A stretch of 64,000 nucleotides of DNA, from contig NW_003158226.1 of NCBI RefSeq assembly GCF_000003605.2, positions 269,334-333,333 on the forward strand, read 5' to 3'. The position numbers were made by a program, and so were the translations under genes. The notes under the pieces are model-generated. The model was given only the letters and a program-made list of their open reading frames with translations, was not told the origin of the DNA and made no database searches. The stretch is from Saccoglossus kowalevskii (Eukaryota; Hemichordata; Enteropneusta; Harrimaniidae). This document shows positions 24,601 through 27,600 of the stretch, in pieces (within the stretch, counting starts at the first letter, position 1; every line of letters starts with the position of its first letter).

Positions 24601-27600
24601 TAAAAGCAAAAATGTCAATGTTTTCTTGTTGGTTTGAAATAAGAACAAAATAATATATGGGTGAATATTATGGAATGAAATTCCAATGCATTTTCTTTGT
24701 TTTAGACCTGGTTCCCTGTATGCGGCCATCTTTTATAGTTAAGTAATTTTACGATGAAGCAGCTCGTCACAGTTATCTTAGTTTTGGAAATTTCAGTTAT
24801 TGGTGCGATAATTTCACGCCACAATCACCGTTTGACACCGCCAGCGAATATTAAAAAATCAAAATCTCTACTTGCGCGCGGGCCGTTATTCATTGAAGGA
24901 GAAGACACTGGAAGGCGCTAAAATGTATTGCGCTTAGTTCGCATTTCAGGCGCCTGTATCAACGGATCATCCACAAAATAGGCGAAAAAACACACACTCA
25001 AATCTACGACGTAGCCTGAATACATTTTAAATTTCATGGCAGGTGTTTGTTTTGCTGCAAATTGGTAAAAACAAGCTCGGAAAAAAATGAAAATATATAT
25101 ATCATCGAGTGTTTCACTTATCACGAGTAGAAATGAACGACGCGCTAATAACAGTTTAACGAGACGAGCGGTGTACACGCGTACACATATATTTCATATA
25201 CTGTACCTTGGCTGTATATAAGATTCACTTGCTCTGCACAGCACAGAAAAAACACCAGCACGCAATACTCCCAAAATGACATTATCTTCGCCTAATACTT
25301 ATAGGTATGCCATTCCACATACGCAAATTACAGCTATCCGAAGTGTGTTAGTCAGTAGTGTCCGCAATACGACCTCTCCTCGCTAGTCCCCGAATCGATC
25401 GCGAGTGACTACTGCTACATCTGTCGATGCACTCACAGAACACAACATTCGCAGTACGACTGCACTCGGGCCCAGCTGTCACTCTGAGAATAGAGCCGAC
25501 CCGGCACCTTTGTAACGCCCGCGTCTATTGGTTGGTGATACGCCCCCAAATTCGTCACAACAATTGATCTGCAGCCAAGTCGGTGACCAATAAAAAGATT
25601 GTTTGCAAAACATCGCATCCCGGGCTTTATTGTTGAATCTCCCGATTCTTCATAAAAAAAGATAATCACAGCGAATGAAAGATATAAATTTGCATTACAA
25701 CAAATGGAAACTATTGACTTTCCACAATTCGCTATTTAAATAAAACTCACCAGTAGTTGACCCGCGGAGTCAATGTTCTATTGTGTACCTAAGCATATTA
25801 TATAGTCAGTTTATATGCGACTTGCTTCTTTCTCGGTATAGACCCATATTATATATCAAATATGTAATTATTACAAATGAATTTGACTGTTATATGAAAA
25901 CATCTGTTTAGTTTATTGCTTGGTTATTCCATGCACCGTCTTATAGGCATGACTGTTGCCGGTCACTTTAAGTATTGACTCCGACGGTAGCAGTGTGTTC
26001 ATTTCTAGAAGTTCAATTGCGTCCTATTCGTGGAATACAAGATTGTAATTAATTCAATTTCTAAATCGATGAGAGTGCTTCCGCAGTGTGCAGTTTTCGA
26101 TGCTCGGAATACTGTCCTTCGTATATGGCTCACACAATAACGTCATACCTACACTGATCAGTGCGAGTCATTCAATACATATCTAATTAATTTGTCTGAG
26201 TGTTCTAATTACGTTAATCATGCACAGGTTGGTTTAATGTGCGTCAGGTGTCGAGGCGGAGGCGAAGTACTTTCACTCATCACTTTATCTCCGCTGTGCA
26301 TGATGGTAATTTTAGGTCCATGTGAACACAAGTTCGTGACACCGGCAATCTGACGTAACACCACTATGGGAGAGACGTGCTAACGACAGGTGACGGTTCC
26401 AAACAACATTTGTGCATTTGAACGATAGTCTCGTTTATCGATGTGCTACGGCGCTGATAAAAACAAAATACGTGCATATCATACTGACATGCCATTCAAC
26501 AAAACCAGCGATCAGGGCTCGCTGTAACCATGGCTCCCAAACTGAATAACCGATCCTTGTTAACATTCACACGTGGCATGACAGGAGAACTGCCCAGACA
26601 GACAGTCAGTGACTGCTCGCTGGCCATAATCGGTCGGTTGTGTACAGAATATAAATCCGACAGCTTAGCCGGTTTACCGTAACATGTAGACACGAGAACT
26701 CAATTCTCTCATACCCTCACTGGAGCAAACAAACCCAACCACATGGTCATTTCACGGAGGCACGTAATTTAACGATGTTTCGATATTTATTTCTATAACG
26801 ACCCGATTTCTAGATTCCTCTGATTTTACAAATCTTACTCCAAATGTATAGCGGCGACAGTAGATTCCAAATTTATCTTTTAAGTAACCACTTCCCTGTC
26901 GGTTCTGACCGAATTGAACCAATAATTGAATTGTTAGGATCCATGCTGAAAGGAACATCGTTTTTCGAGTATAAATTCTCTTGGTCTTGGAATCTAGAAA
27001 GGTCTTGAGCTGAAACAAGTTGTATATTGTTACTGATCCGAATCATAACATTGCTACACGTGATTTATTAATTTAGGTGACATTTTGCCATTATATTGAT
27101 TAAAAATCCCCCATAATGCATTGTGCATATTACTCATTAACACACTCAATAAATGTGGTTCAAACTCTTTTAATATTCACAGTCACCGTGACTGCATTGA
27201 GCACGTAAAACAAAAACGTCCGCGCAATTAATGAAGTTCACTATCTATGTTCAATATTAACTGAGGATAAACATTACATTTTAATCGCCTCTGTTCTAGT
27301 ATTCAATTATTAATCACAACAAAACCGTGACAAAAACAATATTGAATTTATTAAGCTCTAGATTCACATATATTCGAACTTATTACAGTGCACGGAGTCA
27401 AACACACACACTCTTGTATTCTCCCGTAACACTAACATATTAAGCGTCAATCGGTCGCTGTGTGTTCGACGCAGTCAACTTGAGTCGCCGTCTACGATAA
27501 TCCGCTCCGAACTAAAGTAGCCTATCACGGACGGCCCTACAATGGCTGATTCATGATTCAAGTAGAATCGGGGTGTTCCTAGCGGGATTACGAACGTGAA

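What the first reader, a model, noticed from the sequence alone, without database searches (positions are those of the whole stretch)
25207..25282. Second signal-peptide exon inside the Ig4-Ig5 intron predicts a short Dscam lacking Ig1-Ig4
Seen: an ATG with an in-frame TAG four codons upstream, a secretory-type hydrophobic peptide, a good donor (CAAG|GTACAGT) and an end phase that joins the Ig5 acceptor in frame. Known: Ig1-Ig4 of Dscam form the horseshoe that carries much of the homophilic recognition, and chelicerates have separate shortened Dscam genes that lack N-terminal Ig domains. Inferred: one gene makes both a full-length receptor and a form starting at Ig5, with a signal peptide of its own, from an internal promoter. 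Such a form would be secreted to the membrane but could not bind through the headpiece. It might act as a modulator, a decoy or a receptor for other ligands. I know of no described equivalent in a single-copy, vertebrate-like Dscam.
Basis: partly seen in the sequence, partly recalled or inferred. Interest (0 to 1): 0.88.

Follow-up and report, generated by a model that had tools for sequence, protein, structure and literature searches.

The report
Possible internal start exon in Dscam
Inside a long intron of an animal's Dscam gene there is a short stretch that could start a shortened form of the protein with its own secretion signal; the sequence allows it and it looks somewhat better than chance, but nothing here shows that it is used.

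Summary
The stretch is real. On the minus strand, 25,282-25,207 holds an ATG (in-frame TAG four codons upstream) and 25 hydrophobic codons. It ends in phase 1 and joins the Ig5 acceptor (20,916), open through Ig7. "Good donor" needs qualifying: AAG|GTACAG scores below all 14 other scored donors of the gene by a standard matrix (0.11 against 1.82-8.63), but with a one-base bulge it pairs with U1 better than 7 of those 14. A noncoding minus-strand scan accepting either donor measure returns only the canonical leader (61,738-61,654) and this one; by the matrix alone at the gene's own minimum it is not returned. Chance expects about 0.003-0.12 equally strong leaders per such intron, depending on control and donor rule. 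A GC-rich, exon-like block lies just upstream. Against it: four upstream ATGs, no TATA box, an acidic n-region, no RNA and no sister species. Ig5 and Ig7 searches found one Dscam. If used, this is a beta-neurexin-style internal start giving Dscam from Ig5 on. I put that at 0.42, coincidence at 0.38, other uses at 0.2.

The parts
25207..25282 (-). Candidate leader exon, coding part: 25 codons + 1 nt, phase-1 donor AAG|GTACAG
25301..25600 (-). GC-rich, exon-like block just upstream of the leader; possible promoter/5'UTR (inferred)
   Evidence: four upstream ATGs
20620..20916 (-). Ig5 exon, phase 1 in and out; proposed acceptor of the leader exon
11710..11982 (-). Ig6 exon
11262..11543 (-). Ig7 exon
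35283..35555 (-). Ig4 exon, skipped by the proposed short form
35903..36187 (-). Ig3 exon
36943..37089 (-). Ig2 exon, second half
37375..37524 (-). Ig2 exon, first half
57535..57882 (-). Ig1 exon
61654..61738 (-). Canonical leader exon, donor CTAG|GTAAGT; TATAAA at 61,814 upstream

Best explanation
An alternative first exon of Dscam. Transcription starts in or just below the GC-rich block (about 25.3-25.55 kb). The 5' exon ends at 25,207 and is spliced to Ig5 at 20,916. The leader sends a Dscam that begins at Ig5 (lacking Ig1-Ig4) to the secretory pathway. Shown: reading frame, phase, one Dscam locus by Ig5 and Ig7, U1 pairing by calculation. Inferred: promoter activity, use of the donor, translation past four upstream ATGs, signal-peptide function. 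Without Ig1-Ig4 the product would lack the N-terminal headpiece of the homophilic dimer (recalled from insect Dscam1 structures), so a modulatory or other ligand-binding role is a guess.
For: In-frame join without stops. A two-strand scan of 59,741 noncoding bases (donor as good as the gene's weakest by matrix, or U1 pairing as strong as the candidate; leader score 3.5, hydropathy 2.0) gives on the minus strand only the canonical leader and this one, and one ORF on the plus strand. U1 bulge duplex -8.7 kcal/mol, reached by 0.52% of 8,068 GTs; bulge registers are an accepted mode of donor recognition and go with alternative 5' splice sites (PMC9311317, passages seen). A GC-rich block lies directly upstream: 0.45% of 5,504 noncoding 250-bp windows, its own included, are as GC-rich; 16 of 1,230 noncoding minus-strand ATGs, this one and any close neighbours included, lie 1-60 nt below such a block; 5 of 956 noncoding windows, one of them the block itself, are as exon-like in 4-mers. 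One match in the genome at E 0.001, so not a recognised repeat. Markov chance of an equal or better leader with a good donor: 0.003-0.010 per intron.
Against: By matrix the donor is below all 14 other donors scored; with the matrix set at the gene's minimum (1.8) a scan returns no noncoding minus-strand candidate at all. The U1 threshold was set at the candidate's own value after seeing it. Four upstream ATGs. No TATAWA in the 300 nt above the leader, while the canonical leader has one; my initiator patterns found nothing above either. The canonical leader has no GC block upstream, so the block is not a proven promoter mark here. Being single-copy says little: a control stretch over another GC block also matched once. 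Acidic n-region, middling cleavage score. Real sequence of the same genome gives up to 0.116 equal or better leaders per intron. No conservation or RNA data.
Confidence: 0.42

Rival explanations
1. Coincidence: an intronic ORF with a T-rich hydrophobic run and a cryptic donor in a long intron. It is not transcribed from its own promoter and makes no protein.
For: Weak matrix donor. With the weak matrix threshold and ordinary leader thresholds the window's noncoding DNA holds 2 such ORFs on the minus strand (this one and 20,382-20,283) and 4 on the plus strand. Real sequence of the same genome gives 0.12-0.87 per intron at the loosest leader thresholds and 0.058-0.116 at the strict ones. All junctions checked are phase 1, so a phase match is easy. 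Several measures were chosen after seeing the candidate. Upstream ATGs.
Against: Joint rarity of strict leader, U1 pairing and adjacent GC block.
Confidence: 0.38
2. The GC-rich block is an intronic regulatory element, or the start of a noncoding or other small transcript (the unspliced frame would be 45 residues); the leader-like ORF beside it is incidental.
For: Exon-like GC-rich block; the unspliced frame ends at a stop at 25,147; no Pfam match for the 100-residue minus-strand ORF over the block and no Rfam match in 20,000-36,000; similar GC-rich blocks without leaders occur at 27,991-28,260 and 30,521-30,900 in the same intron, the latter largely a 68-bp tandem array.
Against: Does not explain the donor's U1 pairing and phase.
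Confidence: 0.15
3. The leader exon is real but joins another acceptor, or is an internal exon of a transcript that starts elsewhere.
For: Phase 1 would fit each of the phase-1 acceptors placed.
Against: Ig5 is the next downstream exon found; tblastn with Ig5 showed no further Ig exon between 25,207 and 20,916 at E below 10.
Confidence: 0.05

Closest known systems
beta-neurexins (internal promoter of NRXN genes)
   Same: One cell-surface gene makes a long form from the 5' promoter and a short form from an internal promoter (PMC11909895, passage seen). That the short form has its own leader exon is recalled.
   Different: Different gene family; here neither promoter nor transcript is shown.
Chelicerate shortened Dscams (sDscam alpha, beta, gamma)
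   Same: Dscam proteins without N-terminal Ig domains, with leader peptides and alternative promoters (PMC4835542 and PMC5775551, passages seen).
   Different: sDscams are separate genes lacking Ig1-6, Ig10 and FNIII 3-4 and 6; alpha and beta carry tandem 5' cassettes. Here one gene would keep Ig5 onward with one internal leader.
Classical Dscam/DSCAM
   Same: Ig and FNIII exons in Dscam order; Ig5 best matches Drosophila Dscam1 Ig5 (3dmk, E 1.7e-47).
   Different: No internal-leader form seen among papers listed.

Membership tests
Classical Dscam (host gene) | Ig and FNIII exons in Dscam order with Dscam-like Ig5 | tested here: met
   Spliced frame from leader to Ig7 open; Ig5 best hit Dscam1; Ig8 second half, Ig9 and FNIII exons read by eye. 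First half of Ig8 not located; Ig10, TM and tail not modelled.
Chelicerate sDscam | separate shortened gene lacking Ig1-6 | tested here: not met
   Next hits after this locus are 40.9 bits (Ig5) and 29.8 bits (Ig7), against 219.7 and 203.6.
Chelicerate sDscam | tandem 5' Ig7 or Ig7-8 cassettes | tested here: not met
   One strong Ig7 match in the genome.
Internal-promoter short isoform (beta-neurexin-like arrangement) | intronic leader exon with phase-compatible donor | tested here: met
   donor weak by matrix
Internal-promoter short isoform (beta-neurexin-like arrangement) | active internal promoter | not testable with these tools
   Only a GC-rich block upstream; no CAGE or RNA data.
Internal-promoter short isoform (beta-neurexin-like arrangement) | functional signal peptide | tested here: inconclusive
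   Recalled von Heijne-type table gives 4.68 at CCA|EQ; no modern predictor on hand.
Internal-promoter short isoform (beta-neurexin-like arrangement) | conservation of the leader in related species | not testable with these tools
   No relatives of this genome are held.

The most novel reading that the evidence does not exclude
A single-copy classical Dscam gene makes, from an internal promoter and a second leader exon with a bulge-register donor, a membrane Dscam that starts at Ig5 and lacks the Ig1-Ig4 headpiece: a beta-neurexin-like long/short pair in a Dscam gene outside the chelicerate sDscams.
Probability: 0.4. Interest if true: 0.7.

Novelty: new variant of a known kind. Interest (0 to 1): 0.47.

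Why it matters
If used, one Dscam gene would make both a full receptor and a form that lacks the headpiece. That would be a simple way to tune self-recognition without the large exon arrays of insects or the duplicated genes of chelicerates, and a possible step on the way to shortened Dscam genes. It can be tested by one junction in RNA data.

Tried and rejected
Rating the donor by a standard matrix alone made it the lowest of those scored and I first leaned to rejecting the finding; the U1 duplex calculation changed that. Rejected or not supported: the block as a recognised repeat (one match in the genome at E 0.001; no repeat partner in the window at E 1e-8); the 100-residue ORF over the block as a Pfam domain; the region as a known RNA family or a tRNA (bacterial-type settings); the leader as a copy of a leader elsewhere (the one match is itself). 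A sigma-70 promoter scan does not apply to an animal gene and was not used. Searches used exon ends that were off by one and showed false stops; one search is the corrected model. One search crashed and was redone. One search divided by bases that included N; one search gives the right denominator (123,761 real bases of 200,000), used. The exon masks are approximate for the FNIII and Ig10 exons.

Literature: searches for a Dscam short form from an internal start listed none in titles or the abstract starts shown: 20 of 488 matching papers listed, 6 of 6, 2 of 2, 10 of 10, 12 of 41, 10 of 14. Passages of PMC7335077 on Dscam were seen and did not bear on it.

Full report
What is there. The window lies at contig C4725:269334-333333 of an unnamed 572-Mb genome in 4,830 contigs. 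Its minus strand carries a classical Dscam gene. I placed exons for the canonical leader (61,738-61,654), Ig1, Ig2 (two exons), Ig3, Ig4, Ig5, Ig6 and Ig7; all eight junctions are phase 1 and the joined frame has 0 stops. Ig8 (second half), Ig9 and FNIII exons follow. Ig5 matches Drosophila Dscam1 best among solved structures (E 1.7e-47). By Ig5 and by Ig7 the genome shows one such gene: the next hits are 40.9 and 29.8 bits against 219.7 and 203.6.

The candidate. In the 14,366-nt Ig4-Ig5 intron, 25,282-25,207 reads, after TAG GCG AAG ATA, an ATG and 24 more codons plus one base, MSFWEYCVLVFFLCCAEQVNLIYSQ, followed by GTACAGTAT. Joined to 20,916 it continues as AALPIIIESFEEQF and stays open through Ig7. 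The best small-residue cleavage site is CCA|EQ, score 4.68; VNL|IY scores 5.62 but has Leu at -1; the canonical leader scores 8.36. The score table is recalled from memory. Unspliced, the frame ends after 45 residues.

The donor. By a recalled matrix AAG|GTACAG scores 0.11; the 14 other donors I scored run from 1.82 to 8.63 (where more than one GT was near, the one with the best matrix score was taken). So 'good donor' is not right in the standard register. With the C at +4 bulged out, the next bases continue the match to U1. RNAduplex gives -8.7 kcal/mol, stronger than 7 of the 14, and 0.52% of all 8,068 GT sites on both strands, true donors included, reach it. Bulge registers are an accepted mode of recognition and go with alternative 5' splice-site choice (PMC9311317, passages seen).

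Chance. I counted ATG-to-donor ORFs in phase 1 with a leader. At the candidate's own leader strength, order-3 Markov copies of this intron (2,500) gave 0.0244 per intron with the weak matrix threshold, 0.0032 with the U1 threshold and 0.010 with either a matrix score of 1.8 or the U1 threshold; an earlier run of 600 copies gave 0.017 for the first. Real sequence of the same genome (20 stretches of one contig, 123,761 real bases, both strands) gave 2, 1 and 2 hits, or 0.116, 0.058 and 0.116 per intron; some may be true leaders. At the loosest leader thresholds the rates reach 0.37 (Markov) and 0.87 (real). In the window's own noncoding DNA, the weak matrix threshold with ordinary leader thresholds gave 2 ORFs on the minus strand (this one and 20,382-20,283) and 4 on the plus strand; with the matrix at 1.8 there were 0 on the minus strand and 1 on the plus strand (canonical leader masked). 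With either donor rule (59,741 noncoding bases, canonical leader kept) the minus strand returned the canonical leader (three nested ATGs) and the candidate, and the plus strand one ORF at 59,964. The U1 threshold was fixed at the candidate's own value, which favours it.

The block upstream. 25,300-25,549 is 52.4% GC; 0.45% of 5,504 noncoding 250-bp windows, its own included, are as high, in four blocks, two of the others in the same intron. One of those lies over a 68-bp tandem array at 30,573-30,881. The candidate's stretch has one match in the genome, but so has the stretch over the tandem array, so this only argues against a dispersed repeat. Its 4-mers are exon-like: 5 of 956 noncoding windows, one of them the block itself, score as high. 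16 of 1,230 noncoding minus-strand ATGs, this one and any close neighbours included, lie 1-60 nt below such a block. It holds ATTGG at 25,591 and CCAAT at 25,531; 3% of 120-bp windows in the window hold two such pentamers. Against a promoter: no TATAWA in the 300 nt above the leader, whereas the canonical leader has TATAAA at 61,814; my initiator patterns found nothing above either; and the canonical leader has no GC block upstream. Four ATGs at 25,448, 25,420, 25,320 and 25,313 precede the leader ATG; the stop of the third overlaps it by one base. A start below 25,313 would avoid them.

Mechanism and rivals. The best-supported active explanation is an alternative first exon: transcription from the block, splicing at 25,207 to Ig5, a membrane Dscam beginning at Ig5 (0.42). 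Coincidence is nearly as likely (0.38): the intron is long, the checked junctions share one phase, the donor is unusual, and several measures were chosen after seeing the candidate. The block may be an enhancer or the start of another transcript (0.15), or the exon may join elsewhere (0.05). These odds are judgement, not a computed posterior. No RNA, CAGE or sister-species data could be reached; the genome has no relatives held.

Known kinds. The arrangement would work like the internal promoter of neurexin genes (PMC11909895, passage seen). Chelicerate sDscams are the nearest Dscam case (PMC4835542, PMC5775551, passages seen), but they are separate genes lacking Ig1-6, and that test is not met here. 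Six searches listed no Dscam form from an internal start (titles and abstract starts only, and three of the six lists were cut). The library lacks most subscription papers, so this is weak evidence of novelty.

Verdict. The inference is possible and mildly favoured over plain chance by the joint features, but unproven. It would be a new variant of a known kind.

Noticed in passing
window 30573-30881: Tandem array of a 68-bp unit, 4.6 copies, inside the same Ig4-Ig5 intron; coincides with one of the four GC-rich noncoding blocks.
   Followed up: partly
window 55836-56360: Foldback-like element: 90-nt arms 97% complementary, 345 nt apart, with nested shorter repeats and the highest CpG counts in the window; a 55-bp relative at 36811-36863.
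   Followed up: partly
window 6806-6987 and 47471-47652: Two inverted copies of a 182-bp element, 82% identical.
   Followed up: no
window 53121-53302 and 55384-55577: Two direct copies of an element of about 190 bp, 84% identical.
   Followed up: no
window 18383-18611: Long TAT triplet repeat, 78 copies.
   Followed up: no
window 1-64000: CpG is not depleted (mean observed/expected 1.10 in 300-bp windows), which suggests little germline CpG methylation in this animal.
   Followed up: no
window 9633-11261: The first half of Ig8 was not located between the Ig7 exon and the exon with the second half of Ig8 (one search shows 10400-9400 only).
   Followed up: no
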